From positions 1 through 64,000 of the forward strand of contig JAWWNJ010000134.1 of the NCBI GenBank assembly GCA_037176885.1: DNA of 64,000 bases, read 5' to 3'. Below the pieces are notes generated by a model. The model was not told the origin of the DNA, ran no database searches, and saw only the letters and a program-made list of their open reading frames with translations. Shown here piece by piece: positions 1,071 to 57,766 of this stretch; position 1 is the stretch's first letter; every line of letters starts with the position of its first letter. The stretch comes from Favolaschia claudopus. Taxonomy: Eukaryota; Basidiomycota; Agaricomycetes; Agaricales; Mycenaceae. The position numbers and the translations under genes were made by a program.

Positions 1071-1219
1071 TGTGAGCTGTGGATTCCGACAATCTGAGGT
1101 CGAGTTTCACCCTGGTGCACTGATGAGCTGTGGATTCCTCCCACGACGCTATGGATTCCGGTTGCTTGGGGGACCTGTTGCACGGAATTGAGCTCTCAAT
1201 TCCCCGTTACCGTAGCTAG
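1071..1219 (+). mobile_element. Terminal unit 2, family C, 149-bp 5'-truncated copy
   Basis: Begins right after the CTAG of unit 1 with TGTGAGCTGTGG. A longer family C unit shows the same sequence with its natural upstream bases at 55085 (CCAG then TGTGAGC). Three GTGGATTCC/ATGGATTCC repeats lead to palindrome 1184-1203, arms GGAATTGAG and CTCAATTCC, and a 16-nt tail ending in CCGTAGCTAG (1204-1219). Confidence 0.8.
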
Positions 1220-1718
1220 TGCTTTTGTAGCTTCCACTTTGCATCTGAGTTGGTTTGAACACACAACTTCGCATTTTGGATCAATTTAACGGCCTTGGAC
1301 CTTAAAGAAATGTCCAACTTCGCATTTTTGACTCAATTCATAGTCCCTGCTCTACATCCGTTACCAGATTGTCTACTATGTAGTAATACCCATGAATCCC
1401 TTTAATCCCCCAAATCCAACCCCCGGATCCCTCCAAACCCCTAAATCCAACCCCCGAATCCCTCCAAACCCCTGAATCCAACCCCCAAATCCCTCTAAAC
1501 CCCTGAATCCAACCCCTAAATCCCTATATCGTGCGCTAAAATGCTCAAGTTGCCCATATTTCGCATGAATCACAGTCATTTTAACGTCTATGATGGTTAA
1601 ATAACAACCCCCAAATCCCTGTTAACCCCCGAATCCAACCCCAGAATCCCTCCAAACCCCCGAATCCCCCAAAAAGGAAAGCGGATTCAGGGCCCTGATT
1701 CTCGGATGAGATTATTAG
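1220..1718 (+). mobile_element. Terminal unit 3, family L 3' fragment (499 bp)
   Basis: The last 499 bp of the long L element, whose long copy ends at 39155. The 5' edge lies just after an AG in the long copy (38686-38687). It contains C-rich repeats of the type CCCCTGAATCCAACCCCC (about 1400-1530 and 1605-1670), palindrome 1683-1702 and a 16-nt tail ending GATTATTAG (1703-1718). This fragment recurs five more times before the long copy. Confidence 0.8.
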
Positions 1719-2908
1719 GGGAGACCTCTGTTCCTTATAGCTGCTCAGACGGATGTACTTGCGGTGATACAAGTTGGCTTGATGCGGCGTCGTTTTGTAG
1801 AAATCAAAACTGCAAGTCAAGCAGGTGCTGCTCTGACTCAAAGTGGCCTGGTGGGTAGAGCACTCTGAATGTGTTCGACAGGGTCAGACTGGGTTGATTG
1901 GCTACTATAAGCCTCTGTGGTGTACCGTACTTGGTGATGTACTGTTGGTCTTGGTGTTGTACACTTGAGTACGTCCTCCTGTTGACTCGGTGCCCCGTGA
2001 TTTCCTTTACGTTCTAGCGAGCAGCTGTGAGCGGCTAGTTCGCCAATGTCTTCCTGGGTTCCGTTGCTAACCCGTGCATTGCCTTGCTGGATTGCTTGGT
2101 CCGCGGTTTCCTTTCCGAACCTGCCGAAAAAATTTTATATTCTGGTGAATTCCATCGGGGGAGGGGGACCACTAACCTTAACGTATGTGCTGGGGAGTTG
2201 TCCCAAACCTTAACGTCCGTGCTCTGGTATTGCCTTGTGTATTCCGTATGGCTTCGAACACAGTGTTTGACCAAGTCGGGAATGTCAGGTGACCTGCGAC
2301 TCAATCGCTGAGGACACAATCTTATAGCCCTCCTCGAACGCTTCAATTCGAGCCTATACCCAAGGCAATCGGTGCTCAATTGACTGTCGTATTCTGGTTT
2401 CGGTCCAAGCCTTACGTTTTCCCTTCAAGTCAATATAGCACCTCAACGAGACCTGTTCGGGTGTTTGCGGTGACACTAGGCTGACTTGTAGGCTATTTGG
2501 CACCTTTTTGGTCTCCCCCATTTTTCCTGATTTCTTACAAGGCCTCAGAGTCGGCTATTTTAATTTGCATTTCTTATAAGCCTTGGCTCTGGCTTATAAT
2601 TTTTTTTGGCAGTGAGTCGCAATTCTTATAAGGCCGGGCTGGTGACTATAAGAGTCGGGTTGTTTTGTTGTTGTTCCTTTCAGTCAGTGGTGAGTGCTTA
2701 TGATTATTTTGAGTCAAGCAGACAGTTGCGGTATGTTGATTCGATTGGGCTGGATTTGAGTCCTTGGGGTGAATTCCGGTGGTTTCAGGGGGTGAATCAC
2801 AATCTTGGGCTGAATTCCCTCCCACGGTGTCAACCTTGGGCTGAATTCCGCTGTTTCAGGACCCTCTTTCACGGAATCCGTCAACGGATTCCCGGGGAAG
2901 ATAGCTAG
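1719..2908 (+). mobile_element. Family B unit (1190 bp)
   Basis: Starts after the L tail with GGGAGACCTCTG; the uninterrupted version, GGCTAG followed by GGGAGACC, is at 4969-4981. It contains the shared core near 2031-2230 (CTAGTTCGCCAATG, CTAACCCGTGCATTGCC, GCCGAAAAAATTTTATATTC), TATAAGG-type motifs near 2570-2655, four ATTCC repeats and the B palindrome (2873-2892) plus tail (2893-2908). Confidence 0.8.
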
Positions 2909-3057
2909 TGTGAGCTGTGGATTCCGACAATCTGAGGTCGAGTTTCACCCTGGTGCACTGATGAGCTGTGGATTCCTCCCACGACGCTATGGATTCCGGT
3001 TGCTTGGGGGACCTGTTGCACGGAATTGAGCTCTCAATTCCCCGTTACCGTAGCTAG
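2909..3057 (+). mobile_element. Family C unit (149 bp)
   Basis: Same 5'-truncated C unit as at 1071-1219: three ATTCC repeats, palindrome 3022-3041 and the CCGTAGCTAG tail ending at 3057. Directly followed by an A unit that starts TCTTTCTGGAT. Confidence 0.8.
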
Positions 3058-4584
3058 TCTTTCTGGATTCCCCTCAGCATTCCAAGCTATATAGCCAAGG
3101 TTTTGCACCATTACAAGGCATTGACTCTGGCTGTTGGTACATGGGCTCAACTGTGTTCACTTGGCTGGTGCAACACAGTCTTGTATTGGTTTGGCCACCT
3201 TGAACACTATAAGGCTCTGGTTGTATTGGGTACTGTTCAGGCCTGATAATGGTTGCTTGGTCTTTGAATACGTCCTTCTGTTCACTGTGATGACCCTTGA
3301 AGCCTTGCATTAAGTCTTTGTGCTATGTGGTCTTATAATTGTTGGTTGCTACTTGAATACGCCTCTTCCCTCACTCTGATGACCTTGGTTTCCTTTACGA
3401 TAGCGGGGAGGTTTGAGTGTCTAGTTCGCCAATGTCTTGCTGCATTCCGTTGTTAACCCGTGCACTGCCTTGCTGGATTGTGTGCTCTTCGATTTCCTTT
3501 CCGAAGCTGCCGAAAAAATTTTATATTCTGGTGAATTCCGTCGGGGGAGTGGGGTCGCTAACCTTAACGTCCGTGCTCTTGGGTTGTCGCCAACCTTAAC
3601 ATCCCTGCTCTGGTGTTGCCTTGCTGGATTCCGTATTGGTTCAATTGCAGTGTTCAATGCTTGTCCCCTCTGTGCAGTGTCTATACCCATTGAAGTCGAT
3701 ATCCCTAAACCTTGCCAGGACACCAGAGACCTGTAATGCGTGGCTTTGAAGGCCTATCAGTGAGACGTATTCAATTGATGCAGTGCACTTGTCTCTGCAC
3801 GCAAATGACCGTATATATTCAACGCGTCCCAGTACTTGAGTACCTTCAAGTGGTTCGCTTCAGCCGGTCATAGTCCACCCTTGTATCCCTATTCAAATGC
3901 TTCAATTCGACCCTACAACCAAGGCAATCGGTGCACAATTGATTCTGCTATCAGAGTTCCGGTTTTTGCCGTACGGTTTCCGTTCGAGGCCATATAGCAA
4001 GTCAACGAGACCTGTCAGGCTATTCGCGGTGAGGCTACCATGGTTTGTAAGCCATTTGGGACATATTTGATTCCAACAATATTTTTACTGTGCCTTATAA
4101 GGCCCTGACTTTGACAATAATTAGTGTCGCCGTTTATTTCGCATTAATTATTAGGGCTCGTGTGCCATTATAATTATTCGTTTGGGTGTTTGGGTTGGCT
4201 GTGAGAGTTCCTTTTGAGTTGCGTTCATTACAAGGCTTGGCTGTTGGCTATAAGGAGCGTCTCTGTTTTGTCGTTCCATTTAGTTGGTGGTGAGCGGTTA
4301 TAAGTATTTTGGGAAAACCGTAGAAAATCCAGGGAAAGTTCAACTTCGCAGTGGATTCCACTGGTGTGAGGGGGCTGATCACAACTTCGCAGTGGATTCC
4401 ACCAGTTTGGGAGGGCAAATGTCAACTTCGCAGTGGATTCCGGCGGTTTGAGTCGGGTTTTTCCAACTTCGCAGTGGATTCCACCAGTTTGAGAGGGCTT
4501 TTTCACAGCTTCGCAGTGGATTCCCATGAATTTGGAGTGGTTTTTGACGGAATCCGTCGACGGATTCTCCATTACCGTAGCTAG
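3058..4584 (+). mobile_element. Family A unit (1527 bp), possible intact 5' end
   Basis: Begins TCTTTCTGGATTCC immediately after a CTAG; several unrelated units begin with the same bases, so this may be a genuine 5' terminus starting TC. The shared core is at about 3400-3600 and TATAAGG motifs near 4085-4290. Five repeats of CTTCGCAGTGGATTCC lie at about 4343, 4384, 4425, 4473 and 4507. Palindrome GGAATCCGTCGACGGATTCT at 4549-4568 and a tail ending CCGTAGCTAG at 4584. Confidence 0.8.
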
Positions 4585-6163
4585 TCTTTCTGGATATCCC
4601 TCTGGATTCCAGCAGTCTGAAGTCGACGTCCCTAAACCTTGTCAGGATATCAGGGCCTTGTAATGCTTGGCTTTGAGTGCGGGTCGCTGAGAATACCCAG
4701 ATGCATTCTATCCATACGGCTGACTTGCGTTCAAAGGCGATATTCAAGTCAGTGCCCTACTTGAGTGTCTCGATGCCCTCAGATATTCCCGCCAGCCATA
4801 TAGCCTTATAATGCTGGTCAAATGCCTCGTTTCGAGCCTATACCCAAGGCAATGAGTGGCTAATTGAGTCTGGTACGTTGTGTTTGACTTGAGTACAATT
4901 TCCGATCAGCAGGGTCTGTTCGCTATAGGAGACTCAAACGCAGCCTTTGAAGGCCGGTAGTTGTGCCGGCTAGGGGAGACCTCTGTTCCTTATAGCTGCT
5001 CAGACGGATGTACTTGCGGTGATACAAGTTGGCTTGATGCGGCGTCGTTTTGTAGAAATCAAAACTGCAAGTCAAGCAGGTGCTGCTCTGACTCAAAGTG
5101 GCCTGGTGGGTAGAGCACTCTGAATGTGTTCGACAGGGTCAGACTGGGTTGATTGGCTACTATAAGCCTCTGTGGTGTACCGTACTTGGTGATGTACTGT
5201 TGGTCTTGGTGTTGTACACTTGAGTACGTCCTCCTGTTGACTCGGTGCCCCGTGATTTCCTTTACGTTCTAGCGAGCAGCTGTGAGCGGCTAGTTCGCCA
5301 ATGTCTTCCTGGGTTCCGTTGCTAACCCGTGCATTGCCTTGCTGGATTGCTTGGTCCGCGGTTTCCTTTCCGAACCTGCCGAAAAAATTTTATATTCTGG
5401 TGAATTCCATCGGGGGAGGGGGACCACTAACCTTAACGTATGTGCTGGGGAGTTGTCCCAAACCTTAACGTCCGTGCTCTGGTATTGCCTTGTGTATTCC
5501 GTATGGCTTCGAACACAGTGTTTGACCAAGTCGGGAATGTCAGGTGACCTGCGACTCAATCGCTGAGGACACAATCTTATAGCCCTCCTCGAACGCTTCA
5601 ATTCGAGCCTATACCCAAGGCAATCGGTGCTCAATTGACTGTCGTATTCTGGTTTCGGTCCAAGCCTTACGTTTTCCCTTCAAGTCAATATAGCACCTCA
5701 ACGAGACCTGTTCGGGTGTTTGCGGTGACACTAGGCTGACTTGTAGGCTATTTGGCACCTTTTTGGTCTCCCCCATTTTTCCTGATTTCTTACAAGGCCT
5801 CAGAGTCGGCTATTTTAATTTGCATTTCTTATAAGCCTTGGCTCTGGCTTATAATTTTTTTTGGCAGTGAGTCGCAATTCTTATAAGGCCGGGCTGGTGA
5901 CTATAAGAGTCGGGTTGTTTTGTTGTTGTTCCTTTCAGTCAGTGGTGAGTGCTTATGATTATTTTGAGTCAAGCAGACAGTTGCGGTATGTTGATTCGAT
6001 TGGGCTGGATTTGAGTCCTTGGGGTGAATTCCGGTGGTTTCAGGGGGTGAATCACAATCTTGGGCTGAATTCCCTCCCACGGTGTCAACCTTGGGCTGAA
6101 TTCCGCTGTTTCAGGACCCTCTTTCACGGAATCCGTCAACGGATTCCCGGGGAAGATAGCTAG
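4585..6163 (+). mobile_element. Family B' unit (1579 bp), longest B form
   Basis: Begins TCTTTCTGGATATCC after CTAG. It carries all of the B sequence at 1719-2908 plus 389 bp of additional 5' sequence, so it shows the natural upstream context of the truncated B starts (AGGGGAGACC near 4972, AGGATATCAGG near 4643). Ends with the B palindrome (6128-6147) and the GAAGATAGCTAG tail at 6163. Confidence 0.8.
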
Positions 6164-6312
6164 TGTGAGCTGTGGATTCCGACAATCTGAGGTCGAGTTT
6201 CACCCTGGTGCACTGATGAGCTGTGGATTCCTCCCACGACGCTATGGATTCCGGTTGCTTGGGGGACCTGTTGCACGGAATTGAGCTCTCAATTCCCCGT
6301 TACCGTAGCTAG
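6164..6312 (+). mobile_element. Family C unit (149 bp)
   Basis: Repeat of the truncated C unit between the B' unit and the L fragment. Palindrome GGAATTGAGCTCTCAATTCC at 6277-6296, 16-nt tail 6297-6312. Confidence 0.8.
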
Positions 6313-6811
6313 TGCTTTTGTAGCTTCCACTTTGCATCTGAGTTGGTTTGAACACACAACTTCGCATTTTGGATCAATTTAACGGCCTTGGACCTTAAAG
6401 AAATGTCCAACTTCGCATTTTTGACTCAATTCATAGTCCCTGCTCTACATCCGTTACCAGATTGTCTACTATGTAGTAATACCCATGAATCCCTTTAATC
6501 CCCCAAATCCAACCCCCGGATCCCTCCAAACCCCTAAATCCAACCCCCGAATCCCTCCAAACCCCTGAATCCAACCCCCAAATCCCTCTAAACCCCTGAA
6601 TCCAACCCCTAAATCCCTATATCGTGCGCTAAAATGCTCAAGTTGCCCATATTTCGCATGAATCACAGTCATTTTAACGTCTATGATGGTTAAATAACAA
6701 CCCCCAAATCCCTGTTAACCCCCGAATCCAACCCCAGAATCCCTCCAAACCCCCGAATCCCCCAAAAAGGAAAGCGGATTCAGGGCCCTGATTCTCGGAT
6801 GAGATTATTAG
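6313..6811 (+). mobile_element. Family L 3' fragment (499 bp)
   Basis: Same 499-bp L fragment as at 1220-1718, with the same AG-bounded 5' edge, C-rich AATCC repeats, palindrome 6776-6795 and the GATTATTAG end at 6811. Confidence 0.8.
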
Positions 6812-9800
6812 GGGAGACCTCTGTTCCTTATAGCTGCTCAGACGGATGTACTTGCGGTGATACAAGTTGGCTTGATGCGGCGTCGTTTTGTAGAAATCAA
6901 AACTGCAAGTCAAGCAGGTGCTGCTCTGACTCAAAGTGGCCTGGTGGGTAGAGCACTCTGAATGTGTTCGACAGGGTCAGACTGGGTTGATTGGCTACTA
7001 TAAGCCTCTGTGGTGTACCGTACTTGGTGATGTACTGTTGGTCTTGGTGTTGTACACTTGAGTACGTCCTCCTGTTGACTCGGTGCCCCGTGATTTCCTT
7101 TACGTTCTAGCGAGCAGCTGTGAGCGGCTAGTTCGCCAATGTCTTCCTGGGTTCCGTTGCTAACCCGTGCATTGCCTTGCTGGATTGCTTGGTCCGCGGT
7201 TTCCTTTCCGAACCTGCCGAAAAAATTTTATATTCTGGTGAATTCCATCGGGGGAGGGGGACCACTAACCTTAACGTATGTGCTGGGGAGTTGTCCCAAA
7301 CCTTAACGTCCGTGCTCTGGTATTGCCTTGTGTATTCCGTATGGCTTCGAACACAGTGTTTGACCAAGTCGGGAATGTCAGGTGACCTGCGACTCAATCG
7401 CTGAGGACACAATCTTATAGCCCTCCTCGAACGCTTCAATTCGAGCCTATACCCAAGGCAATCGGTGCTCAATTGACTGTCGTATTCTGGTTTCGGTCCA
7501 AGCCTTACGTTTTCCCTTCAAGTCAATATAGCACCTCAACGAGACCTGTTCGGGTGTTTGCGGTGACACTAGGCTGACTTGTAGGCTATTTGGCACCTTT
7601 TTGGTCTCCCCCATTTTTCCTGATTTCTTACAAGGCCTCAGAGTCGGCTATTTTAATTTGCATTTCTTATAAGCCTTGGCTCTGGCTTATAATTTTTTTT
7701 GGCAGTGAGTCGCAATTCTTATAAGGCCGGGCTGGTGACTATAAGAGTCGGGTTGTTTTGTTGTTGTTCCTTTCAGTCAGTGGTGAGTGCTTATGATTAT
7801 TTTGAGTCAAGCAGACAGTTGCGGTATGTTGATTCGATTGGGCTGGATTTGAGTCCTTGGGGTGAATTCCGGTGGTTTCAGGGGGTGAATCACAATCTTG
7901 GGCTGAATTCCCTCCCACGGTGTCAACCTTGGGCTGAATTCCGCTGTTTCAGGACCCTCTTTCACGGAATCCGTCAACGGATTCCCGGGGAAGATAGCTA
8001 GTGTGAGCTGTGGATTCCGACAATCTGAGGTCGAGTTTCACCCTGGTGCACTGATGAGCTGTGGATTCCTCCCACGACGCTATGGATTCCGGTTGCTTGG
8101 GGGACCTGTTGCACGGAATTGAGCTCTCAATTCCCCGTTACCGTAGCTAGTCTTTCTGGATTCCCCTCAGCATTCCAAGCTATATAGCCAAGGTTTTGCA
8201 CCATTACAAGGCATTGACTCTGGCTGTTGGTACATGGGCTCAACTGTGTTCACTTGGCTGGTGCAACACAGTCTTGTATTGGTTTGGCCACCTTGAACAC
8301 TATAAGGCTCTGGTTGTATTGGGTACTGTTCAGGCCTGATAATGGTTGCTTGGTCTTTGAATACGTCCTTCTGTTCACTGTGATGACCCTTGAAGCCTTG
8401 CATTAAGTCTTTGTGCTATGTGGTCTTATAATTGTTGGTTGCTACTTGAATACGCCTCTTCCCTCACTCTGATGACCTTGGTTTCCTTTACGATAGCGGG
8501 GAGGTTTGAGTGTCTAGTTCGCCAATGTCTTGCTGCATTCCGTTGTTAACCCGTGCACTGCCTTGCTGGATTGTGTGCTCTTCGATTTCCTTTCCGAAGC
8601 TGCCGAAAAAATTTTATATTCTGGTGAATTCCGTCGGGGGAGTGGGGTCGCTAACCTTAACGTCCGTGCTCTTGGGTTGTCGCCAACCTTAACATCCCTG
8701 CTCTGGTGTTGCCTTGCTGGATTCCGTATTGGTTCAATTGCAGTGTTCAATGCTTGTCCCCTCTGTGCAGTGTCTATACCCATTGAAGTCGATATCCCTA
8801 AACCTTGCCAGGACACCAGAGACCTGTAATGCGTGGCTTTGAAGGCCTATCAGTGAGACGTATTCAATTGATGCAGTGCACTTGTCTCTGCACGCAAATG
8901 ACCGTATATATTCAACGCGTCCCAGTACTTGAGTACCTTCAAGTGGTTCGCTTCAGCCGGTCATAGTCCACCCTTGTATCCCTATTCAAATGCTTCAATT
9001 CGACCCCACAACCAAGGCAATCGGTGCACAATTGATTCTGCTATCAGAGTTCCGGTTTTTGCCGTACGGTTTCCGTTCGAGGCCATATAGCAAGTCAACG
9101 AGACCTGTCAGGCTATTCGCGGTGAGGCTACCATGGTTTGTAAGCCATTTGGGACATATTTGATTCCAACAATATTTTTACTGTGCCTTATAAGGCCCTG
9201 ACTTTGACAATAATTAGTGTCGCCGTTTATTTCGCATTAATTATTAGGGCTCGTGTGCCATTATAATTATTCGTTTGGGTGTTTGGGTTGGCTGTGAGAG
9301 TTCCTTTTGAGTTGCGTTCATTACAAGGCTTGGCTGTTGGCTATAAGGAGCGTCTCTGTTTTGTCGTTCCATTTAGTTGGTGGTGAGCGGTTATAAGTAT
9401 TTTGGGAAAACCGTAGAAAATCCAGGGAAAGTTCAACTTCGCAGTGGATTCCACTGGTGTGAGGGGGCTGATCACAACTTCGCAGTGGATTCCACCAGTT
9501 TGGGAGGGCAAATGTCAACTTCGCAGTGGATTCCGGCGGTTTGAGTCGGGTTTTTCCAACTTCGCAGTGGATTCCACCAGTTTGAGAGGGCTTTTTCACA
9601 GCTTCGCAGTGGATTCCCATGAATTTGGAGTGGTTTTTGACGGAATCCGTCGACGGATTCTCCATTACCGTAGCTAGTCTTTCTGGATATCCCTCTGGAT
9701 TCCAGCAGTCTGAAGTCGACGTCCCTAAACCTTGTCAGGATATCAGGGCCTTGTAATGCTTGGCTTTGAGTGCGGGTCGCTGAGAATACCCAGATGCATT

Positions 9801-11903
9801 CTATCCATACGGCTGACTTGCGTTCAAAGGCGATATTCAAGTCAGTGCCCTACTTGAGTGTCTCGATGCCCTCAGATATTCCCGCCAGCCATATAGCCTT
9901 ATAATGCTGGTCAAATGCCTCGTTTCGAGCCTATACCCAAGGCAATGAGTGGCTAATTGAGTCTGGTACGTTGTGTTTGACTTGAGTACAATTTCCGATC
10001 AGCAGGGTCTGTTCGCTATAGGAGACTCAAACGCAGCCTTTGAAGGCCGGTAGTTGTGCCGGCTAGGGGAGACCTCTGTTCCTTATAGCTGCTCAGACGG
10101 ATGTACTTGCGGTGATACAAGTTGGCTTGATGCGGCGTCGTTTTGTAGAAATCAAAACTGCAAGTCAAGCAGGTGCTGCTCTGACTCAAAGTGGCCTGGT
10201 GGGTAGAGCACTCTGAATGTGTTCGACAGGGTCAGACTGGGTTGATTGGCTACTATAAGCCTCTGTGGTGTACCGTACTTGGTGATGTACTGTTGGTCTT
10301 GGTGTTGTACACTTGAGTACGTCCTCCTGTTGACTCGGTGCCCCGTGATTTCCTTTACGTTCTAGCGAGCAGCTGTGAGCGGCTAGTTCGCCAATGTCTT
10401 CCTGGGTTCCGTTGCTAACCCGTGCATTGCCTTGCTGGATTGCTTGGTCCGCGGTTTCCTTTCCGAACCTGCCGAAAAAATTTTATATTCTGGTGAATTC
10501 CATCGGGGGAGGGGGACCACTAACCTTAACGTATGTGCTGGGGAGTTGTCCCAAACCTTAACGTCCGTGCTCTGGTATTGCCTTGTGTATTCCGTATGGC
10601 TTCGAACACAGTGTTTGACCAAGTCGGGAATGTCAGGTGACCTGCGACTCAATCGCTGAGGACACAATCTTATAGCCCTCCTCGAACGCTTCAATTCGAG
10701 CCTATACCCAAGGCAATCGGTGCTCAATTGACTGTCGTATTCTGGTTTCGGTCCAAGCCTTACGTTTTCCCTTCAAGTCAATATAGCACCTCAACGAGAC
10801 CTGTTCGGGTGTTTGCGGTGACACTAGGCTGACTTGTAGGCTATTTGGCACCTTTTTGGTCTCCCCCATTTTTCCTGATTTCTTACAAGGCCTCAGAGTC
10901 GGCTATTTTAATTTGCATTTCTTATAAGCCTTGGCTCTGGCTTATAATTTTTTTTGGCAGTGAGTCGCAATTCTTATAAGGCCGGGCTGGTGACTATAAG
11001 AGTCGGGTTGTTTTGTTGTTGTTCCTTTCAGTCAGTGGTGAGTGCTTATGATTATTTTGAGTCAAGCAGACAGTTGCGGTATGTTGATTCGATTGGGCTG
11101 GATTTGAGTCCTTGGGGTGAATTCCGGTGGTTTCAGGGGGTGAATCACAATCTTGGGCTGAATTCCCTCCCACGGTGTCAACCTTGGGCTGAATTCCGCT
11201 GTTTCAGGACCCTCTTTCACGGAATCCGTCAACGGATTCCCGGGGAAGATAGCTAGTGTGAGCTGTGGATTCCGACAATCTGAGGTCGAGTTTCACCCTG
11301 GTGCACTGATGAGCTGTGGATTCCTCCCACGACGCTATGGATTCCGGTTGCTTGGGGGACCTGTTGCACGGAATTGAGCTCTCAATTCCCCGTTACCGTA
11401 GCTAGTGCTTTTGTAGCTTCCACTTTGCATCTGAGTTGGTTTGAACACACAACTTCGCATTTTGGATCAATTTAACGGCCTTGGACCTTAAAGAAATGTC
11501 CAACTTCGCATTTTTGACTCAATTCATAGTCCCTGCTCTACATCCGTTACCAGATTGTCTACTATGTAGTAATACCCATGAATCCCTTTAATCCCCCAAA
11601 TCCAACCCCCGGATCCCTCCAAACCCCTAAATCCAACCCCCGAATCCCTCCAAACCCCTGAATCCAACCCCAAATCCCTCTAAACCCCTGAATCCAACCC
11701 CTAAATCCCTATATCGTGCGCTAAAATGCTCAAGTTGCCCATATTTCGCATGAATCACAGTCATTTTAACGTCTATGATGGTTAAATAACAACCCCCAAA
11801 TCCCTGTTAACCCCCGAATCCAACCCCAGAATCCCTCCAAACCCCCGAATCCCCCAAAAAGGAAAGCGGATTCAGGGCCCTGATTCTCGGATGAGATTAT
11901 TAG
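6812..11903 (+). repeat. Higher-order repeat copy 2 (5092 bp)
   Basis: Same order as copy 1: B 6812-8001, C 8002-8150, A 8151-9677, B' 9678-11256, C 11257-11405, L fragment 11406-11903. Visible differences from copy 1 are a T to C in the A unit (GACCCCACAACC near 9005) and one C missing from a C-run in the L fragment (near 11670), which accounts for the one-base shorter length. Confidence 0.9.
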
Positions 11904-37632: not shown

Positions 37633-37644
37633 GGAAGGAGAACG

Positions 37645-37795: not shown

Positions 37796-37854
37796 TTTTG
37801 TTTTCGAGTTTTGGCTCTGTTTGACAGGGGTGGCAGGTGGCCAGAGGAAAAAGG

Positions 37855-37862: not shown

Positions 37863-37998
37863 GAGGAGCTTTTCCTGCCACTCCCCAGCATTCTGCACTT
37901 CCCAACTGCCACACAAACACCACTCACACTCACACCCCATCCTTGCCACCCACATCCCTACCTCTGCCACCCACAACCACACCCTCCCCTCTGCCACT

Positions 37999-41726: not shown

Positions 41727-41740
41727 GATGAGATACATAG
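41727..41740 (+). mobile_element. 14-nt remnant unit: a family K tail only
   Basis: GATGAGATACATAG sits between the CTAG of the D unit and unrelated sequence. It is identical to the last 14 nt of the K unit ending at 43004, where it is preceded by AG. I read it as a K unit truncated to its last 14 nt before the D unit was joined. Confidence 0.6.
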
Positions 41741-44262: not shown

Positions 44263-45492
44263 TCTTTGTGGATTCTCCTCCACATTCCAAGCTATATCAC
44301 CAACATTTTGCACCATTACAAGGCATTGACTCTGGCTGTTGGTACATGGGCTCCACCGTGTTCACTTGGCTGGTGCAACACAGTCTTGTATGGTATTGAC
44401 TCAATTGAACACTATAAGGCTCTGGCTGTATTGGGTACTATTCTGGTCTTATAATGGTTGCTTAGCCTTTGAATACGTCCTCCTGTTCACTGTGATGACT
44501 CTTAAAGCCTTGTATTGAGTCTCTATGCAATCTGGCCTTATAATGGTTGGTCGCTACTTGAATACGTCTCTTCCCTTCACTCTGATGACCTTGGTTTCCT
44601 TTACGTTCTAGCGGGCAGCTATGAGCGGCTAGTTCGCCAATGTCTTGCTGCATTCCGTTGTTAACCCGTACACTGCCTTGCTGGATTGTGTGCTCTTCGA
44701 TTTCCTTTCCGAACCTGCCAAAAAAATTTAGGATAACAGTGGATTCCATCGGGGGAGTGATGTCGCCAACCCTAACATCTGTGCTGTTGAGTTGTCGCCA
44801 ACCTTAACGTCTCTGCTCTGGTGGTGCCTTGTGTATTCCGTATGGCTTTGAACGCAGTGTTTGACCAAGTCGTAAATGTCAGGTGACCTGCGACTCAATC
44901 GCTGATGACATAACCTTATAGTCCTCGTCAAACGCTTCCATTCGAGCCTATACCCAAGGCAATCAGTGCCCAATTCACTGTCGTACCAAGCTTTCGGTCC
45001 AAGCTGTACGATTTCCATTCAAGTCAATATAGCACGTCAACGAGACCTGTTTGGGTGTTTGCGGTGACACTAGGCTGATTTGTAGGCTATTTGGCACCCT
45101 TTTGGTCTCCACTATTTTTCCTGGTTTCTTACAACCCCTCAGAGTCGGCTATTTTAATTTGCATTTCTTATAAGCCTTGGCTCTGGCTTATAATTTTTCT
45201 TGGCAGTGAGTCGCAATTCTTATAAGGCCTGGCTGGTGACTATAAGAGTCGGGTTGTTTTCTTGTTGTTCCTTTCAGTCAGTGGTGAGTGCTTATGATTA
45301 TTTTGACTCAAGCGGTATGTTGATTCGATTGGGCTGGATTCCAGTCCTTGGGGTGAATTCCGGTGGTTTCAGGTGGTGAATCACAATCTTGGGCTGAATT
45401 CCCTCCCACGGTGTCAACCTTGGGCTGAATTCCGCTGTTTCAGGACCCTCTTTCACGGAATCCGTCAACGGATTCCCGGGGAAGATAGCTAG
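44263..45492 (+). mobile_element. Chimeric unit: D-type 5' part, B-type 3' part (1230 bp)
   Basis: Starts TCTTTGTGGATTCTCC and matches the D units at 40321 and 46658 until about 44828. There GGTGGTGCCTTG continues as the B body (GTGTATTCCGTATGGC) rather than the D body (CTGGATTCCGTATAGC). Ends with a B palindrome (CGTCAACG centre, 45457-45476) and tail to 45492. A recombinant within the shared core. Confidence 0.75.
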
Positions 45493-48063
45493 GACACCAG
45501 GGACCTGTAATGCTTCCTTCTGAACACCTATCAGTGACACGTATGCAATTGATGCAGTACACTTGTGTCTGCCATATAGCTTCGATTGGCGTGTTCGGTG
45601 CTTGTATTGTTTACGCAGTGTCTGTACTGTCTGAAGTCGCTATGCCTAAACCTTGCCAGGACACCAGAGACCTATAATGTGTGGCTTTCAAGTCCTATCA
45701 GTGAGACACATTCAATCGATGCAGTGCACTTGTCTCTGCACGCAAATGACCGTATATATTCAACACGTCCCAATACCTGAGTACCTTGACTTAGTTCAAT
45801 GCGATTGCTGGCAGTGTAGCCTTGTAGCGGCATTCAAACGCTTCAATTCGAGCCTACAACCAAGGCAATCGGTGCACAATTGACTCTGCTATCAGAGTTC
45901 CGGTTTTCGCTGTACGGTTTCCGTTCCAGGCCGTATAGCAAGTCGACGAGACCTGTCAGGCCTTTTGCGGTGACCCTACCATGGTTTGTAGGCCATCTGG
46001 GACATATTTGGTTCGAACAATATTTTTCTGCACCGTCATTATAGCGTCCAACCGGTGACTATAATAATGATTTTAGTTGGCATTAATTATAAGGGCTGTC
46101 ACTTGGCTATAATTTTTTCGCATTTATTATAAGGGCTGGGGGTCGTCTATAAGAATCCTTTTGCACTTTCGAGTGGGTGTTGAGATTTTTGTAGGGTGTT
46201 CCTTTTCATTTTCCTGCTGTCGGAGGGCTGAGAGACGACACACTGAATTCCGGCGATTTGGGTGAGCTTTTCACCATCAAAATTGATGCGCACTGAATTC
46301 CTTCCCACGCTAGGGGTTGCGCACGTAATTCCACCGTTTTCAGTCCCCTTTTCACGGAATTACGATCGTAATTCCCGGGTAAGATAGCTAGGCCTGGCTG
46401 GTGACTATAAGAGTCGGGTTGTTTTGTTGTTGTTCCTTTCAGTCAGTGGTGAGTGCTTATGATTATTTTGACTCAAGCGGTATGTTGATTCGATTGGGCT
46501 GGATTCCAGTCCTTGGGGTGAATTCCGGTGGTTTCAGGTGGTGAATCACAATCTTGGGCTGAATTCCCTCCCACGGTGTCAACCTTGGGCTGAATTCCGC
46601 TGTTTCAGGACCCTCTTTCACGGAATCCGTCGACGGATTCCCGGGGAAGATAGCTAGTCTTTGTGGATTCTCCTCCACATTCCAAGCTATATCACCAACA
46701 TTTTGCACCATTACAAGGCATTGACTCTGGCTGTTGGTACATGGGCTCCACCGTGTTCACTTGGCTGGTGCAACACAGTCTTGTATGGTATTGACTCAAT
46801 TGAACACTATAAGGCTCTGGCTGTATTGGGTACTATTCTGGTCTTATAATGGTTGCTTAGCCTTTGAATACGTCCTCCTGTTCACTGTGATGACTCTTAA
46901 AGCCTTGTATTGAGTCTCTATGCAATCTGGCCTTATAATGGTTGGTCGCTACTTGAATACGTCTCTTCCCTTCACTCTGATGACCTTGGTTTCCTTTACG
47001 TTCTAGCGGGCAGCTATGAGCGGCTAGTTCGCCAATGTCTTGCTGCATTCCGTTGTTAACCCGTACACTGCCTTGCTGGATTGTGTGCTCTTCGATTTCC
47101 TTTCCGAACCTGCCAAAAAAATTTAGGATAACAGTGGATTCCATCGGGGGAGTGATGTCGCCAACCCTAACATCTGTGCTGTTGAGTTGTCGCCAACCTT
47201 AACGTCTCTGCTCTGGTGGTGCCTTGCTGGATTCCGTATAGCTTCGATAGGCGTGTTTGGGTTTACGCAGTGTCTCTACCCATTGAAGTCGATATCCCTA
47301 AACCTTGCCAGGACACCAGAGACCTGTGATCCGTGGTTTCGAAGGCCTATCAGTGAGACGTATTCAATTGATGCAGTGCAGTTGTCTCTGCAAGCAAATG
47401 ACCGTATATGATCAACGTGTCCCAGTACTTGAGTCCCTTGATGCGGCTCGATAAGGCTGATCATGGCAGACCCTTGTAGCTCTATTCGAACGCTTCAATT
47501 CGAGCCTATACCCAAGGCAATCGGTGCACAATTGACTGTGCTATCAGAGTTTCGGTTTTCGCCCTACGGTTTCCGTTCGAAGCCATATAGCAGGTCAATG
47601 AGACCTGTCAGGCCATTTCTGGTGACACTACCATGGTTTGTAGCCCATTTGGGACATCTTTGGTTCCCACAATATCTTTTGGCAGCGTTAATATAGTGCG
47701 GTACAGTCGACTATAATAATGATTTTAATTGGCATTTATTATATGGCCTCACACTTGGCTATAATTTTTCCGCATTTATTATAAGGGCTAGGGCTCGTCT
47801 ATAAGAATCCTTTTGCACTTTCGAGTTGGTGCTGGGATTTTTGTAGGGTGTTTCTTTTTGTTTTGCTGCTGTCGGAGGGCTGAGAGACGACGCACTGAAT
47901 TCCTGTCGTCGCACTGAATTCCGGCGATTTGGGTGAGCTTTTCACAATCAAAATTGATGCGCACTGAATTCCTTCCCACGCTGGGGGTTGTCGCACGTAA
48001 TTCCACCGTTTTCAGTCCCCTTTTCACGGAATTACGATCGTAATTCCCGGGGAAGATAGCTAG
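45493..48063 (+). repeat. Second copy of the 2571-bp D-B2-D block
   Basis: D 45493-46391, B2 46392-46657, D 46658-48063, each the same length as in the block at 39156-41726. Only a few single-base changes were noticed (GCGATTGCTGG near 45804, AATATCTTTTGG near 47672). The copies lie 6337 bp apart in the same orientation. The flanks differ, so this is a segmental duplication or conversion rather than independent joining. Confidence 0.85.
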
Positions 48064-50208: not shown

Positions 50209-52953
50209 GCGTCAACATTTGACGTGGATCCAACCACGGGAAGTGTCAACGCCTCCTTGAGCCAAAACGGATGTGGAATAAGCCACTGGTTGGGGGATCT
50301 AGTGGCGAATCTCCACAACGGACGAAAAAACAAATATGGCTCTGATATGGTTGGGAAGCTGTGGTCCGTGCCGAAAAGGGTATCCATTCAGTTTTTCCAT
50401 TTTGGGAATGTATAGAGTGCAATGAGGGGATGTCTATTGATTTTCAAAAACCAATAGCTACCAGTTCTCTACGTTGTATTGAAGGCACTTGTGTATGGTA
50501 AGACTCGAGTGTCTGGGGAAATAAGCTTTGATATAGGGTATATGAGTTGGTGTTACCAGTTTTGTGTGGGGCCGCATTGATCGCATAGACATTCCTTTCG
50601 AGACTTTGGCACCCCAAATCTGACAGAGGCAGAATGCCCAAGTCTTGTTGAACACGGATTCCTGGAACTACTACATAAGTGGTGGACCTGGAGCTTTAAA
50701 CTAGGGTGGAGGAGGTGTAATGGTATGGTATCGCACAGTTTCTGAATTTATAAGTAAGGGGAAGGACACAGTGAATAAAGAGACTAGCCTCTCATACAAC
50801 GGAGGAAATATACCTCATTGCCGTTCAGGGATGCCGGGATTAAAACCTCCTATATCGTCCAGGAACCTCCCTGGAAAGGTTCCCCTGGTCAAACGGAGCA
50901 TTTTTCAAACAGGGGTACCATCGATCACATGACTCCTCCCCTCGCAATGGAGCAAACACCGAAAACAGCCTATTCCACTGTGCAAGGCCCGCGGCTGCGA
51001 AAATCTTCGCGTCACCCATCCCAGATCGTGAGAGTGAGGCATGTGATCATATTCTGACACAGGGCTAGCCCCCGTCACCTCCCGCGGCCTTGATATTGCC
51101 TTTTCCGGTAATTTTTCGCACTAGAGAGGTTCGACTCCCCCGTTGGTGGCGCGGCGCTCCCGCGGGTGTTAGTTTGGGATGAAACATAGTCTGTGGACCC
51201 ATACCCACCCATTAGTACCATATTTGGACATGGCTTGCCCACCATTGCAATCCGAGTGCTTGATTGTCAACCACTGGTATATTCAGTACCTTTGAACTCG
51301 TCGCCCGCAATTTCCTTGGCGATATAGCGGGGAGGTGTGAGTGGCTAGTTTGTCAATGTCTTGCGGGATCCCGTTGCTAACCCCCGCATTCATTAGCTGG
51401 ATTGCGTGCTCTTCGACTTCATGCCGAGAGTGCCGAAAAAATTTAGGATAACAGTGGATTCCGTCGGGGGAGGGAGGTCGCTAACCTTAACGTCCGTGTT
51501 TGAGGGGGTTTCGTGCTCTGTTATTGACTTGCGGGACAACCTACTTGGCCCAAGTAGGTGCACTTCCAAGGCGGGAGCGCGCTTACGCACCTCTCAATCA
51601 ATACTTGCTCAAACGGCTCGATGCAAGGGAGAAGTTGAAGGTTACACAAACAAAAGCACAGATTAGTAAGCAATTTCTTACCACATGCTTTGTCAGCAAA
51701 TACCCATACATGCCTTGGGCCTGATCAACTCGCCCTATAGCCCTATGCGATACTTATTACTGCATATTAGGGTGCATTAAAGGTCGGGAATTCTACGTAA
51801 GCCCCACTGGTAAACCAACCTAAACTATACAAAGATTGGTAAGCAATGTCCCACCATATGCTTTGTCAGCAAATGTGCATTCCCTCTGCCTCCTCACCTT
51901 GTCGAGAACTGGTTTAGATACTTATTACTGCATAGCAGGGTGTGATGAGCGAACCCCCTAGATTGTCCAGGGACCTCCCTGGAAATGTTCCCCTGGTCAA
52001 CTAGAGCATCTTATGAAATCGGAGTGCAGCGCTCTGATGATTCCTTGTCTCGCAACAGCCGTTTCGGTCTCTTCGCCCTTGTAAGCGGTACACCAGAGTC
52101 CAACTCGCCCAACACTGCTCCGATCGCCATGATTTTTCGCTCAGATCATAGCCTGGGAACAGGGATCTGATATTCTCGCCAGGTTGTGTCCCGCGGTCAC
52201 CTGGCGGCAGAGCCTTGGTCGCTCGTACCAGCCAAGTACGCTATTTTCACCTTTCGAACGCTTGCCCTCGTTCCCGCCTAATACTGCTGCGATAGACTGG
52301 GCATTGGCAGGGGGAGGCTTCTACTTTTGGATTCCCTCCGCAGGCGTCAACATTTGACGTGGATCCAACCACGGGAAGTGTCAACGCCTCCTTGAGCCAA
52401 AACGGATGTGGAATAAGCCACTGGTTGGGGGATCTAGTGGCGAATCTCCACAACGGACGAAAAAACAAATATGGCTCTGATATGGTTGGGAAGCTGTGGT
52501 CCGTGCCGAAAAGGGTATCCATTCAGTTTTTCCATTTTGGGAATGTATAGAGTGCAATGAGGGGATGTCTATTGATTTTCAAAAACCAATAGCTACCAGT
52601 TCTCTACGTTGTATTGAAGGCACTTGTGTATGGTAAGACTCGAGTGTCTGGGGAAATAAGCTTTGATATAGGGTATATGAGTTGGTGTTACCAGTTTTGT
52701 GTGGGGCCGCATTGATCGTATAGACATTCCTTTCGAGACTTTGGCACCCCAAATCTGACAGAGGCAGAATGCCCAAGTCTTGTTGAACACGGATTCCTGG
52801 AACTACTACATAAGTGGTGGACCTGGAGCTTTAAACTAGGGTGGAGGAGGTGTAATGGTATGGTATCGCACAGTTTCTGAATTTATAAGTAAGGGGAAGG
52901 ACACAGTGAATAAAGAGACTAGCCTCTCATACAACGGAGGAAATATACCTCAG
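50209..52953 (+). mobile_element. Atypical segment without a 3' terminus (2745 bp)
   Basis: Begins GCGTCAACATTTGAC after CTAG. It contains a 609-bp direct duplication (50209-50817 and 52344-52952). A diverged shared core lies at 51295-51520 with a CCCGC/GCGGG stem. Two related segments of about 115 bp (TGCTTTGTCAGCAAAT, GATACTTATTACTGCAT) are at 51661-51775 and 51833-51945. A repeat with CCAGGAACCTCCCTGGAAA or a variant is at 50860 and 51968. No palindrome plus tail ends it: after the second duplicate the sequence passes directly into TCGATATCCC of the next unit. I recognise no gene here. Confidence 0.55.
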
Positions 52954-53709: not shown

Positions 53710-55256
53710 TCTTTCTGGATATCCCTCTGGATTCCAGCAGTCTGAAGTCGACGTCCCTAAACCTTGCCAGGATATCAGGGCCTTGTAATGCTTGGCTTTG
53801 AGTGCAAGTCATTGAGAATATCCAGATGCATTCAATCAATACAACCGACTTGCGTTCAAAGGCGATATTCAAGTCAGTGCCCTACTTGAGTGCCTCGATG
53901 CCCTCAGATGTTCCCGCCAGCCATATAGCCTTATAATGCTGGTCAAATGCTTCGTTTCGAGCCTATACCCAAGGCAATGAGTGGCTAATTGAGCCTGGTA
54001 CGTTGTGTTTGACTTGAGTACAATTTCCGATCAGCAGGGTCTGTTTGCTATTGGAGACCCCAATGCAGCCTTTGAAGGCCGGTAGTTGTGCCGGCTATGA
54101 GAGACCTCTGTTCCTTATAGCTGCTCAGGCGGATGTACTTGTGGTGATACAAGTTGGCTTGATGCAGTGTCGTTTTGTAGAAATCAAAACTACAAGGCAA
54201 GCAGGTGCTGCTCTGACTCAAAGTGGCCTGGTGGGTAGAGCCCTCTGAATGTGTTCGACAGGGTCAGACTGGGTTGATTGGCTACTATAAGGCTCTGTGG
54301 TGTACCATACTTGGTGATGTACTGTTGGTCTTCGTGTTGTACACTTGAGTACATCCTCCTGTTGACTCGGTGCCCTGCAATTTCCTTTACGTTCTAGCGG
54401 GCAGCTGTGAGCGGCTAGTTCGCCAATGTCTTCCTGGATTCCGTTGCTAACCTGTGCATTGCCTTGCTGGATTGCTTGGTCCACGGTTTCCTTTCCGAAG
54501 CTGCCGAAAAAATTTTATATTCTGGTGAATTCCGTCGGGTGAGTGAGACCACTGACCTTAACGTATGTGCTAGGTAGTTGTCGCAAACCTTAACCTCCGT
54601 GCTTTGGGGTTGCCTTGTGTATTCCGTATGGCCTCAAACGCAGTGTTTCACCCAGCCGTGAATGTCAGGTGACCTGGGACTCGATCGCTGGTGACATCAT
54701 CCTATAGTTCTCGTCAAACGCTTCCATTCGGGCCTATACCCAAGGCAATCGGTGCCCAATTCACTGTCGTACCAAGCTTTCGGTCCAAGCCTTACGTTTT
54801 CCATTCAAGTCAACACAGCAAGTCAACGAGACCTGTTTGGGCATTTGCGGTGACACTAGGCTGATTTGTAGGCTATTTGGCACCCTTTTGGTCTCCACCA
54901 CTTTTACCGATTTCTTACGAGGCCTCAGAGTCAGCTATTTTAATTGCATTTCTTATAAGCCTTGGCTCTGGCCTATAATTTTTTTTGGCAGTGAGTCGCA
55001 ATTCTTATAAGGCCTTGCTGGTCACTATAAGTTGTTTTGCAGTTCCTAATGACTGAGGGCAGATCTGACTGTGCTGTGGATTCCAGTGTGAGCTATGGAT
55101 TCCGGCAATCTGAGGTTGAGTTTCACCCTGGTGCACTGATGAGCTGTGGATTCTTCCCACGACGCTATGGATTCCTCCCACGGAGCCGTGGATTCCGGTG
55201 GTTTGAGGGACCTGTTGCATGGAATTGAGCTCTCAATTCTCCGTTACCGTAGCTAG
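53710..55256 (+). mobile_element. Long family C unit (1547 bp), possible intact 5' end
   Basis: Begins TCTTTCTGGATATCC like the B' units, and shares the B' body through the core (about 54410-54610). It then ends with C-type repeats: CTATGGATTCC, CTGTGGATTC, GCCGTGGATTCC. Palindrome 55221-55240, tail to 55256. It supplies the natural upstream sequence of the 149-bp C units (AG at 55085-55086). Confidence 0.8.
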
Positions 55257-56508
55257 TACAATTTCCGATCAGCAGGGTCTGTTTGCTATTGGAGACTCAA
55301 ATGCAGCCTTTGAAGGCCGGTAGTTGTGCCGGCTATGAGAGCCCTCTGTTCCTTATAGCTGCTCAGACGGATGTCCTTGCGGTGATACAAGTTGGCTTGA
55401 TGCGGCGTCGTTTTGTAAAAATCAAAACTGCCAGTTAAGCAGGTGCTGCTCTGACGGTGAGTAGAGCACTCTGAATGTACCTGTTGCTGTTGTTGCAAGG
55501 GATGATACTCACTAGGCAGTCTGGGTTGATCGCCTCCATTGAGTTCTTTGATGTATTGTTGACCATTGCCGCCGTACACTTGAGTACGTGCTTCTGTTGA
55601 CTCGGTGCCCCTTGATTTCCTTTACGATAGCGGGGAGGTTTGAGTGGCTAGCTCGCCAATGTCTTGCTGGATTCCAGTGCTAACCCGTGCATTGCCTTGC
55701 TGGATTGCTTGGACCGCGGTTTCCTTTCCGAAGCTGCCGAAAAAATTTTATATTCTGGTGAATTCCATCGGGGGAGTTGGGACCACTAACCTTAACATCC
55801 CTGTTGTGGTGTTGACCCAAACCTTAACATCCGTGCTTCGGTGTGGCCTTGTGCATTCCGTACGGCCTCGAACGCAGTGTTTCACCCAGTCGTGAGGGTC
55901 AGGTGACCTGCGACTCGATTGCTGATAGCAGGCTCTTATAGCCCTCGTCAAACGCTTCCATTCAGGCCTACAACCAAGGGAATCGGTGCTCAATTGACGG
56001 TGCTATTGAGGTCTCAGTCCAAGCCTTACGTTTTCCCTTGAAGTCAATATAGCACCTCAACGGGACCTATTCGGGTGTTTGCGGTGACACTAGGCTGATT
56101 TGTAGGCTATTACACACCCTTTTGGTTTCCACCAATTTTTCCCGATGGCTTGAGTTGGCTGTTCAATCACATTTCTTATAAGCCTTGGCTGTGGCTTATA
56201 ATTTTTTCTGGCAGTGACTCGCAATTCTTATAAGGCCTTGCTGGTGACTATAAGAGTTGCTTGCTCTCTTTCGTTCTATGTCTGACTTGGGGTGCAACCA
56301 GAATTCCCGTTGTCAAGCAGAATTCCTGTGGTTTCGGTGGCTGAATCACAACTGCAACCAGAATTCCTGAGACTTGGCTCATTTGAGACCTGTTGTTAAG
56401 CACGTCAACCAGAATTCCCTCCCACGGTGTCAATTGCAAGCAGAATTCCACTGGTTTCAGTACCCTTTTCACGGAATCTGGATCCAGATTCCCGGGGAAG
56501 ATAGCTAG
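55257..56508 (+). mobile_element. Family F unit (1252 bp)
   Basis: Begins TACAATTTCCGATCAGC after CTAG; intact context TTGAG then TACAATTTCC near 54016. Core at 55630-55830, TATAAGCC or TATAAGGCC motifs near 56175-56240. Repeats AACCAGAATTCC or AAGCAGAATTCC at 56290-56450, perfect palindrome GGAATCTGGATCCAGATTCC at 56473-56492, tail to 56508. The iteron CCAGAATTCC differs from the palindrome arm CCAGATTCC by one extra A. Confidence 0.8.
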
Positions 56509-57766
56509 GCTCTGGTTGTATTCGGTACTGTTCAGGCCTTATAATGGTTGGTGATTGTGTGAATACCACGTCTTGTTCACTCTGTACCATTTGACGTGTT
56601 GTATTGCAGCTCGGTGGTCTCTGGCCTTGCAGTCATAGGTCTCTGGCTGAATACGTTGCTTCCCTCACTCCAATGACCTTGCTTTCCTTTACGTTCTAGC
56701 GGGCAGCTGTGAGCGGCTAGTTCGCCAATGCCTTGCTGCATTCTGTTGTTAACCCGTACACTGCCTTGCTGGATTGCGTGGTCTTCGATTTCCTTTCCGA
56801 AGCTGCCGAAAAAATTTTATATTCTGGTGAATTCCGTCGGGGGAGTGGGGTCGCTAACCTTAACGTCTGTGCTCTTGGGTTGTCGCCAACCTTAACGTCT
56901 CTGCTCTGGTGTTGCCTTGCTGGATTCCGTATTTGTTCGGTTGCAGTGTTCGATGCTTGTCCCCTCTACGCAGTGTCTATACCATCTGAAGTCGATATCC
57001 CTAAACCTTGCCAGGACACCAGAGACCTATAATGTGTGGCTTTCAAGTCCTATCAGTGAGACACATTCAATCAATGCAGTGCACTTGTCTCTGCACGCAA
57101 ATGACCGTATATATTCAACACGTCCCAATACCTGAGTACCTTGACTTAGGTCAATGCGATCGCTGGCAGTGTAGCCTTGTAGCCGCATTCAAACGCTTCA
57201 ATTCGAGCCTACAACCAAGGCAATCGGTGCATAATTGACTCTGCTATCAGAGTTCCGGTTTTCGCCGTACGGTTTCCGTTCGAGGCCATATAGCAAGTCA
57301 ACGAGACCTGTCAGGCCATTCGTGGTGACACTACCATGGTTTGCAAGCCATTTGGGACATATTTGGTTCCAGCAATATTTTTCTGCACCGTCATTATAGT
57401 GTCCAACCGGTGACTATAATAATGATTTTAGCTGGCATTAATTATAAGGGCTCGCACTTGGCTATAATTTTTTCGCATTTAATATAAGGGCTAGGGCTCG
57501 TCTATAAGATTCTTTTTGCAGTTTCGAGTTGGTGCTGAAATTGTTTGACAGTGTTCTTTTTATTCTCCTGTTGGCAGAGGGTAGACAGACGACGCCGTGG
57601 ATTCCTTGCGACGCCATGGATTCCGGTGATTTGAGGTTCAATTTACACCCTGTTGCATTGATGCGCCGTGGATTCCTTCCCACGATCCCAACGACGCCGT
57701 GAATTCCAGTAGATCCAGAGACCTTTTCACGGAATGCCGCCCTGCATTCCCGGGGAAGATAGCTAG
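56509..57766 (+). mobile_element. Family H unit with GATAGCTAG tail (1258 bp), innermost unit
   Basis: Begins GCTCTGGTTGTATTCGG after CTAG; related intact context TATAAG then GCTCTGGTTG near 3214. Core at 56690-56900. GACGCCGTGGATTCC-type repeats at 57590-57710, palindrome 57731-57750 identical to the other H unit, but with the GGGAAGATAGCTAG tail. It abuts unique chromosomal sequence at 57766/57767. Confidence 0.8.

What the first reader, a model, noticed from the sequence alone, without database searches (positions are those of the whole stretch)
1071..57766. Every unit junction falls at an AG: evidence for repeated end-truncation and terminal addition
Seen directly: the sequence after each tail is the interior of another unit, and where an intact copy of that interior exists it has AG just before the junction. 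Examples: TGTGAGC (55085), TGCTTTTG (38686), GGGAGACC (4972), TGGCCTGG (1840), TCAATATAG (45028), TACAATTTCC (54016), GCGTCAAC (52342). The replaced outer part of the inner unit is not found on the far side of the joined unit, so this is replacement, not insertion. Inference: an eroded chromosome end whose 3' strand ends in CT is joined to the AG end of a new element. This could be RNA-templated priming, as for telomeric retroelements, or a Rep-like transfer to AG sites.
Basis: partly seen in the sequence, partly recalled or inferred. Interest (0 to 1): 0.9.

Follow-up and report, generated by a model that had tools for sequence, protein, structure and literature searches.

The report
Hairpin-tailed units rebuild chromosome ends
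At this chromosome end, and at others of the same genome, short, apparently non-coding DNA units with a folded tail have been stuck one after another onto worn-down ends, mostly right after the letters AG, which looks like a chromosome-end repair system that uses a two-letter match.

Summary
Units end in a covarying hairpin plus a linker ending in TAG (mostly GCTAG), tail pointing inward. In 47 of 59 distinct junctions the closest un-truncated parent has AG at the breakpoint (background 4.8%); with parents of at least 95% identity, 32 of 35. Telomere repeats, by contrast, attach at AG in 0 of 8 cases. Three junctions whose acceptor is not a unit were testable, and all read AG in intact copies. 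All 78 in-array unit 5' ends found abut a tail, so units replace rather than interrupt. "Every" is too strong: exceptions exist, and intact 5' ends form a second class without AG. Best explanation: an eroded chromosome 3' end in CT pairs with the AG-3' end of a unit copy and is extended. The template is more likely RNA than Rep-made single-stranded DNA, but the tail matches the textbook Helitron 3' end. No reverse transcriptase partner (that search did not complete) and no Helitron sharing this tail was found. A new variant of chromosome-end addition: apparently non-coding units, several tail families, a 2-nt rule, beside TTAGGG telomeres.

The parts
1..191 (.). telomere repeat (CCCTAA)n, joined to a truncated unit at G192
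1035..1070 (+). A-type tail: hairpin GGAATCCG-TCAA-CGGATTCC + CGGGGAAGATAGCTAG
1071..1219 (+). 149-bp inner remnant starting TGTGAGC after AG, ending in a B-type tail
1184..1219 (+). B-type tail: hairpin GGAATTGAGCTCTCAATTCC + CCGTTACCGTAGCTAG
1683..1718 (+). C-type tail: GGATTCAGGGCCCTGATTC (holds the palindrome TCAGGGCCCTGA; weak predicted fold) + TCGGATGAGATTATTAG
1716..30766 (+). macro-repeated block (period about 5.1 kb, about 99.9% identical) of A, B and C units
3058..4584 (+). full-length unit, 5' end TCTTTCTGGATTCC, B tail
4585..6163 (+). full-length unit, 5' end TCTTTCTGGATATC, A tail; holds the AG|GGGAGACC parent site (AG at 4972-4973)
30766..39155 (+). 8.4-kb C-tailed element with ORFs of no known family; holds the AG|TGCTTTTG parent site (AG at 38686-38687)
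39156..48063 (+). run of truncated and full A/B units; 39156-41727 is repeated at 45493-48064
50209..52952 (+). D-type element: truncated 3' copy (50209-50817) joined to a longer copy ending ..AAATATACCTCAG; parent site AG|GCGTCAAC (AG at 52342-52343)
53710..55256 (+). full-length unit (TCTTTCTGGATATC .. B tail); holds parent sites AG|TACAATTTCC (about 54016) and AG|TGTGAGC (about 55085)
56509..57766 (+). innermost unit, A tail, joined to chromosomal DNA at 57766|57767
57767..58900 (.). chromosomal acceptor; 97-98% identical pieces on contig C10, which continues outward with AG at this point

Best explanation
These are chromosome-end-specific, apparently non-coding mobile units with a structured 3' end (hairpin plus linker ending in TAG). 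Shown by sequence: where a chromosome end has been cut back, a unit sits with its fixed 3' end at the breakpoint, its 5' end points outward, and the lost outer part is replaced. Inferred: the recessed 3' strand, ending in CT, pairs over two bases with the 3'-terminal AG of a single-stranded unit copy, most likely its RNA, and a reverse transcriptase working in trans on a free DNA end copies the unit outward. If the copy reaches the template's 5' end, the enzyme adds an untemplated base and jumps to the next template, giving tail|N|CTTTCTGGAT junctions without AG. Telomerase then caps whatever end remains, at sites that do not follow the AG rule.
For: AG in 47 of 59 best parents against 4.8% background, rising with closeness of the parent to 32 of 35 at >=95% identity; control: telomere repeats join units at AG in 0 of 8. 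C tail: 4 of 4 testable. Three of three testable non-unit acceptors read AG, in 1 of 1, 4 of 4 and 3 of 3 of the intact copies that I read. 78 of 78 unit 5' ends found abut a tail. Hairpin arms covary: 77 of 84 stem pairs Watson-Crick, shuffles 32.6 +- 4.5. Neighbouring units in 10 of 10 pairs that met the length limits are different subfamilies (69.6-80.7% identity over 481-944 bp), so arrays are not concatemers of one copy. The first base of intact 5' ends varies, T19 G4 C3 A1 in 27 events, as expected of an untemplated base. [quoted passage not shown] A telomerase RNA-binding domain is encoded.
Against: No reverse transcriptase was linked to the units: the genome search with PF00078 did not complete, and the 15 ORFs that I scanned, a part of those listed, gave no reverse-transcriptase hit. 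There is no poly(A) and no known reason for an RNA to end exactly at UAG. Annealing alone predicts longer matches too, yet T at -3 is depleted (3 of 47 against 21%, p 0.005) and G at +1 is enriched (27 of 47 against 26%), which hints at an enzyme preference rather than simple pairing. The tail fits the published Helitron 3' end. 12 of 59 best parents lack AG, and for some junctions only the closest copy has it. The C tail folds only weakly, and of two D junctions one reads CTCA|T, not AG.
Confidence: 0.5

Rival explanations
1. Rep-made DNA: the units are non-autonomous Helitron-type elements. A Rep/helicase releases single-stranded unit DNA with a 3' CTAG end, which is joined at AG to a broken chromosome end, either by Rep strand transfer or by microhomology end joining of two 3' ends.
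For: The 3' end matches the Helitron definition (16-20-nt hairpin about 12 nt before CTRR; Pleurotus Helitrons end CT[A/T]G, 5' T[C/G]; PMC4289320 passages). The most common 5' end is TC (19 of 27). The genome holds at least 167 PF14214 matches, many with long open frames.
Against: Acceptor is AG|N, not A|T. No two-flanked insertions were seen. Neighbouring units are different subfamilies. The one local Helitron 3' end that I resolved ends ..GGGTGCTAA with another hairpin. C and D tails end TTAG and CTCA(G). No Rep gene was found in the array ORFs scanned; C137, where one lies 1.9 kb from a contig start, shows no tails in its first 4 kb.
Confidence: 0.28
2. Recombination: broken ends copy other chromosome-end arrays by microhomology-mediated break-induced replication or gene conversion, and the hairpin merely stalls or starts the copying.
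For: Large near-identical macro-repeats and duplicated segments show that recombination does act on these arrays. The same inner segment is capped at one AG by two different tails.
Against: The donor side begins at the last base of a tail, which template choice by 2-nt homology would not give. A/B and C tails do the same. Acceptors include DNA unrelated to the units.
Confidence: 0.12
3. Ordinary transposon insertion into sites next to AG, followed by loss of the outer half through erosion.
For: Erosion certainly occurs, since truncated units are capped by telomere repeats.
Against: With 27 distinct intact 5' ends, none retains an outer flank. The listed tails are oriented one way at both kinds of contig end.
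Confidence: 0.05

Closest known systems
HeT-A / TART / TAHRE telomeric non-LTR retrotransposons (Drosophila)
   Same: Chromosome-end additions on the 3' OH of the DNA end, endonuclease dispensable; HeT-A lacks its own reverse transcriptase (PMC4700185 passages; 3'-inward orientation recalled)
   Different: Oligo(A) 3' end and no AG rule (recalled); no telomerase gene there. Here the 3' end is a hairpin plus TAG, and TTAGGG telomeres and a telomerase RNA-binding domain are present
FoTeR telomeric retrotransposons (Fusarium); MoTeR (Pyricularia, recalled)
   Same: Fungal chromosome-end-specific elements, some truncated, found with telomere-linked helicases (PMC12857005 abstract and section 19)
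   Different: They sit in telomere repeats and carry TAACCC copies at the 3' junction; here no telomere repeat lies at the unit 3' junctions examined
Endonuclease-lacking Penelope-like elements / terminons (rotifers; Coprina in basidiomycetes), recalled
   Same: Need a free 3' end; attached at chromosome ends (recalled); Penelope-like elements reported at two telomere-less ends of Agaricus bisporus (PMC7473861 passages)
   Different: Telomere-repeat junctions and a coding reverse transcriptase (recalled); not tested here
Helitrons (rolling-circle, HUH Rep)
   Same: 3' hairpin about 12 nt before CTAG, mostly 5' TC
   Different: No A|T target, no flanked insertions, confined to chromosome ends, different tail from the one local Helitron resolved
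R2 reverse transcriptase template jumping (biochemistry)
   Same: 1-2-nt complementary overhang and untemplated bases at jumps (PMC8857657 abstract and passages)
   Different: An enzyme property measured in vitro; no R2-type protein was found or searched for here

Membership tests
Helitron | 16-20-nt 3' hairpin about 12 nt upstream of CTRR | tested here: met
   A and B tails: 8-bp stem, 4-nt loop, 12 nt, CTAG; C tail ends TTAG instead
Helitron | 5' TC end | tested here: inconclusive
   19 of 27 distinct intact 5' ends begin TC; the rest GC, CC, AC
Helitron | insertion between A and T with both flanks kept | tested here: not met
   acceptor AG|N in 47 of 59; no outer flank at 78 of 78 unit 5' ends found
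Helitron | ends shared with an autonomous RepHel element in the genome | tested here: inconclusive
   one local 3' end resolved..GGGTGCTAA, differs; a second family's end was not reached; the other families were not examined
Telomeric non-LTR retrotransposon | found at chromosome ends, 3' end inward | tested here: met
   listed part of 332 pattern matches, two exceptions on C21; lengths of C36, C43 and C76 not seen; C tail likewise where lengths are known, except C120
Telomeric non-LTR retrotransposon | added to a free end, replacing lost DNA | tested here: met
   the free end itself is inferred
Telomeric non-LTR retrotransposon | reverse transcriptase in the element or a partner sharing the 3' end | not tested
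   PF00078 genome search did not complete; 15 ORFs scanned gave none
Telomeric non-LTR retrotransposon | poly(A) or simple-repeat 3' tail | tested here: not met
   tails end in hairpin + linker + TAG
MoTeR/FoTeR | telomere repeats at the 3' junction | tested here: not met
   acceptors are unit or chromosomal DNA
Penelope-like terminon | PLE reverse transcriptase; hammerhead motif | tested here: inconclusive
   no Rfam hammerhead in the window at E<=1; reverse transcriptase not searched

The most novel reading that the evidence does not exclude
A Helitron-type Rep system, or an equivalent that makes 3'-hairpin single-stranded DNA, has become a chromosome-end builder: it delivers non-coding units with a CTAG 3' end one-sidedly to broken chromosome ends at AG, alongside telomerase. 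That would be a DNA-based, non-telomerase mode of end healing with no counterpart that I know of.
Probability: 0.25. Interest if true: 0.92.

Novelty: new variant of a known kind. Interest (0 to 1): 0.76.

Why it matters
How non-telomerase elements choose and prime on a chromosome end is mostly known from a few retroelements. Here dozens of junctions in one genome give a quantitative 2-nt rule, a covarying 3' structure, a second junction class explainable by template jumping, and a pair of homologous contigs showing one acceptor with and without the added units. It makes the chemistry of end addition testable, and shows such addition beside TTAGGG telomeres and a telomerase RNA-binding domain.

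Tried and rejected
Helitron membership: rejected as a filing (target and flanks fail), kept as a rival mechanism. Interior copies as proof of retrotransposition: rejected. C120 at 383.3 kb carries telomere repeats + a 102-bp unit remnant + AG + parent, that is, a captured piece of a chromosome end. L038 on C21 is a short 3' fragment between other repeats, and L059 on C21 is an interior array with a Helitron 3' end in it. Rep gene on C137 near a contig start: no tails and no telomere in its first 4 kb. C83 end: RepHel but no A/B tails in the 20 kb read. Non-unit acceptors: 6 examined (C134, C27, C61, C5, C58, C10); 3 had intact copies across the junction, all AG. C5 and C10 had none, and the C58 homologue starts 83 nt inside. 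I read 4 of the C27 repeat copies and 3 of the C61 copies found. Other junctions without a parent (for example in L022 and L033) were not pursued. A 167-aa ORF of the C element has no homologue at E<=0.001. The host was not identified; a fungus is my inference. Papers: seven answered searches listed no title or abstract that describes an AG rule for terminal addition; subscription papers and preprints are mostly outside that library.
Full report
Setting. The window is the start of contig C134 (644 kb) of a 264.6-Mb, 460-contig genome, eukaryotic by its size and telomere. Bases 1-191 are (CCCTAA)n. A telomerase RNA-binding domain is encoded on C51 and C91 with identical scores, and on C23. The first 57.8 kb are a patchwork of related units. 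None of the five ORFs that I scanned there reaches a Pfam cut-off (four, one).

Anatomy of a unit. Units were cut at tails: an 8-bp stem with a 4-nt loop (GGAAT...ATTC), then a linker ending AAGATAGCTAG (A) or TTACCGTAGCTAG (B). The held loci, some overlapping, contain 251 tails of 64 distinct sequences. The inner stem varies but keeps pairing: 77 of 84 variable-arm pairs in 28 distinct hairpins are Watson-Crick and 2 are G-T; 2000 shuffles gave 32.6 +- 4.5, maximum 47. The same hairpin occurs with both linkers. A separate family (C) has another palindrome, which folds only weakly alone, and ends GATTATTAG; its longest copy here is 8.4 kb, 30766-39155. A third (D, 50209-52952) ends ..ATATACCTCA(G). 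Full-length A/B units are about 1.35-1.6 kb and begin N-CTTTCTGGAT or a variant.

Position and direction. The exact B-tail pattern occurs 332 times in the genome, 170 forward and 162 reverse, and 0 times read backwards. The listing is capped. In it, forward hits lie within 69 kb of contig starts, and reverse hits within about 90 kb of contig ends where lengths are known, except two on C21; the lengths of C36, C43 and C76 were not seen. C-tail matches fit the same pattern where lengths are known, except one on C120. The C120 case is a piece of chromosome end captured inside a contig: telomere repeats, 102 bp of unit, AG, parent.

The AG rule. For each distinct junction I aligned the sequence after the tail to copies that continue outward. 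Of 99 junctions, 18 are the intact-5'-end class; 63 of the other 81 have a parent of >=80% identity, 59 after collapsing like breakpoints: 47 have AG in the best parent, background 4.8%, p = 6e-51. With parents that are themselves tails removed it is 47 of 58; at >=90% identity 41 of 49; at >=95% 32 of 35. The rule thus sharpens as the parent gets closer. Against it, the more distant copies often differ: AG is the majority reading over all parents in 45 of 58, mean fraction 0.69. Of the 12 without AG, 7 keep the G. For C tails 4 of 4 testable junctions have AG. T is depleted at -3 (3 of 47), and G is enriched and C depleted at +1 (27 and 2 of 47). Breakpoints, mapped for 65 of 99 junctions, are spread along the unit with a few repeated sites. 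Control: at 8 telomere-unit joints the parent reads GT, TT, GT, TG, CA, CG, GA and TT, so AG in 0 of 8.

Acceptors that are not units. At the window's innermost junction, 57766|57767, contig C10 carries 97-98% identical sequence that runs on outward, and reads ..gacgccgAG|CTCGTCGATG. C10 carries units itself in its first 10.6 kb, so C134 lacks at least 43 kb present there, if the two are homologous ends. On C27 the acceptor is a dispersed repeat; 4 of 4 copies read have ..tatttcAG|GACGTG. On C61 it is another dispersed repeat; 3 of 3 copies read have ..taacaAG|GTTT. Three other inner junctions could not be tested. So the rule is not a by-product of the units' own sequence.

Replacement, not insertion. 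All 78 occurrences of the unit 5'-end motifs in arrays, 27 distinct events, directly follow a tail; none follows the outer half of an interrupted unit. Six more motif hits are not unit 5' ends (gene, Helitron or chromosomal DNA). In the 10 neighbouring pairs that met the length limits the two units are different subfamilies (69.6-80.7% identity over the aligned part), so the arrays are not concatemers of one copy.

How it most likely works. Shown: ends are cut back, a unit is joined by its exact 3' end, AG is shared by both partners, and the outer part is gone. Inferred: the recessed strand ends ..CT-3' and pairs with ..AG-3' of a single-stranded unit copy, which is then copied outward. For an RNA template this is target-primed reverse transcription on a free end; R2 reverse transcriptase prefers 1, at most 2, complementary overhang nucleotides and needs untemplated bases when it jumps (PMC8857657 abstract and passages). 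This accounts for the AG rule and for the extra base (T19 G4 C3 A1) at intact 5' ends. For a DNA template it would be one-sided capture of Rep-made single strands; the A/B tail fits the Helitron definition (PMC4289320 passages). I favour RNA because the units are confined to ends, different subfamilies follow each other, A/B and C tails share the rule, and the one local Helitron end that I resolved differs. But the reverse transcriptase search did not complete, so no partner gene is shown. I put terminal addition by itself at about 0.85 and the RNA route at 0.5.

Against this reading. An RNA ending exactly at UAG has no precedent that I know. The flanking preferences (-3 not T, +1 G) look like an enzyme's choice. 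Helitrons are abundant here (at least 167 PF14214 matches). One of the two D junctions does not end in AG. The literature check is limited to open-access papers (seven answered searches).

Noticed in passing
window 39156-41727 and 45493-48064: Near-identical (99.9%) inner segments are capped at the same acceptor AG|GACACC by two different tails (C at 39155, A at 45492), as if one worn end had received two different additions before the copies were brought together.
   Followed up: partly
C120, about 383296-383775 (L058): A captured chromosome-end fragment inside a contig: telomere repeats, a 102-bp unit remnant and parent DNA, a snapshot of an end.
   Followed up: yes
C27:1754-1923 (L053): Interstitial (CCCTAA)n with gene-like DNA outward of it (it looks like a UCH37-type hydrolase by eye, not searched); a fusion or a chimeric contig.
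   Followed up: no
C21:2048000-2049600 (L059): Unit array about 224 kb from a contig end, holding a short stretch whose 3' end matches the local Helitron end ..GGTGCTAA.
   Followed up: partly
L034:3-1193: DEAD-box helicase ORF inside the C17 array, probably a telomere-linked helicase (that name is recalled).
   Followed up: no
window 30766-39155: The 8.4-kb C-tailed element carries an antisense multi-ORF region and a 187-aa sense ORF; no Pfam family at a curated cut-off for four ORFs and no homologue for the one searched.
   Followed up: partly
window 2034, 31169, 32245, 54414 and others: A conserved internal block around GGCTAGTTCGCCAA in many units, including the C element; function unknown, possibly a promoter.
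   Followed up: no
C83, C129, C194 near 13.2 kb; C286, C436: Five contigs have RepHel matches with identical scores, three at the same distance from the contig start: perhaps a duplicated chromosome end, without A/B tails in the 20 kb of C83 that I read.
   Followed up: partly
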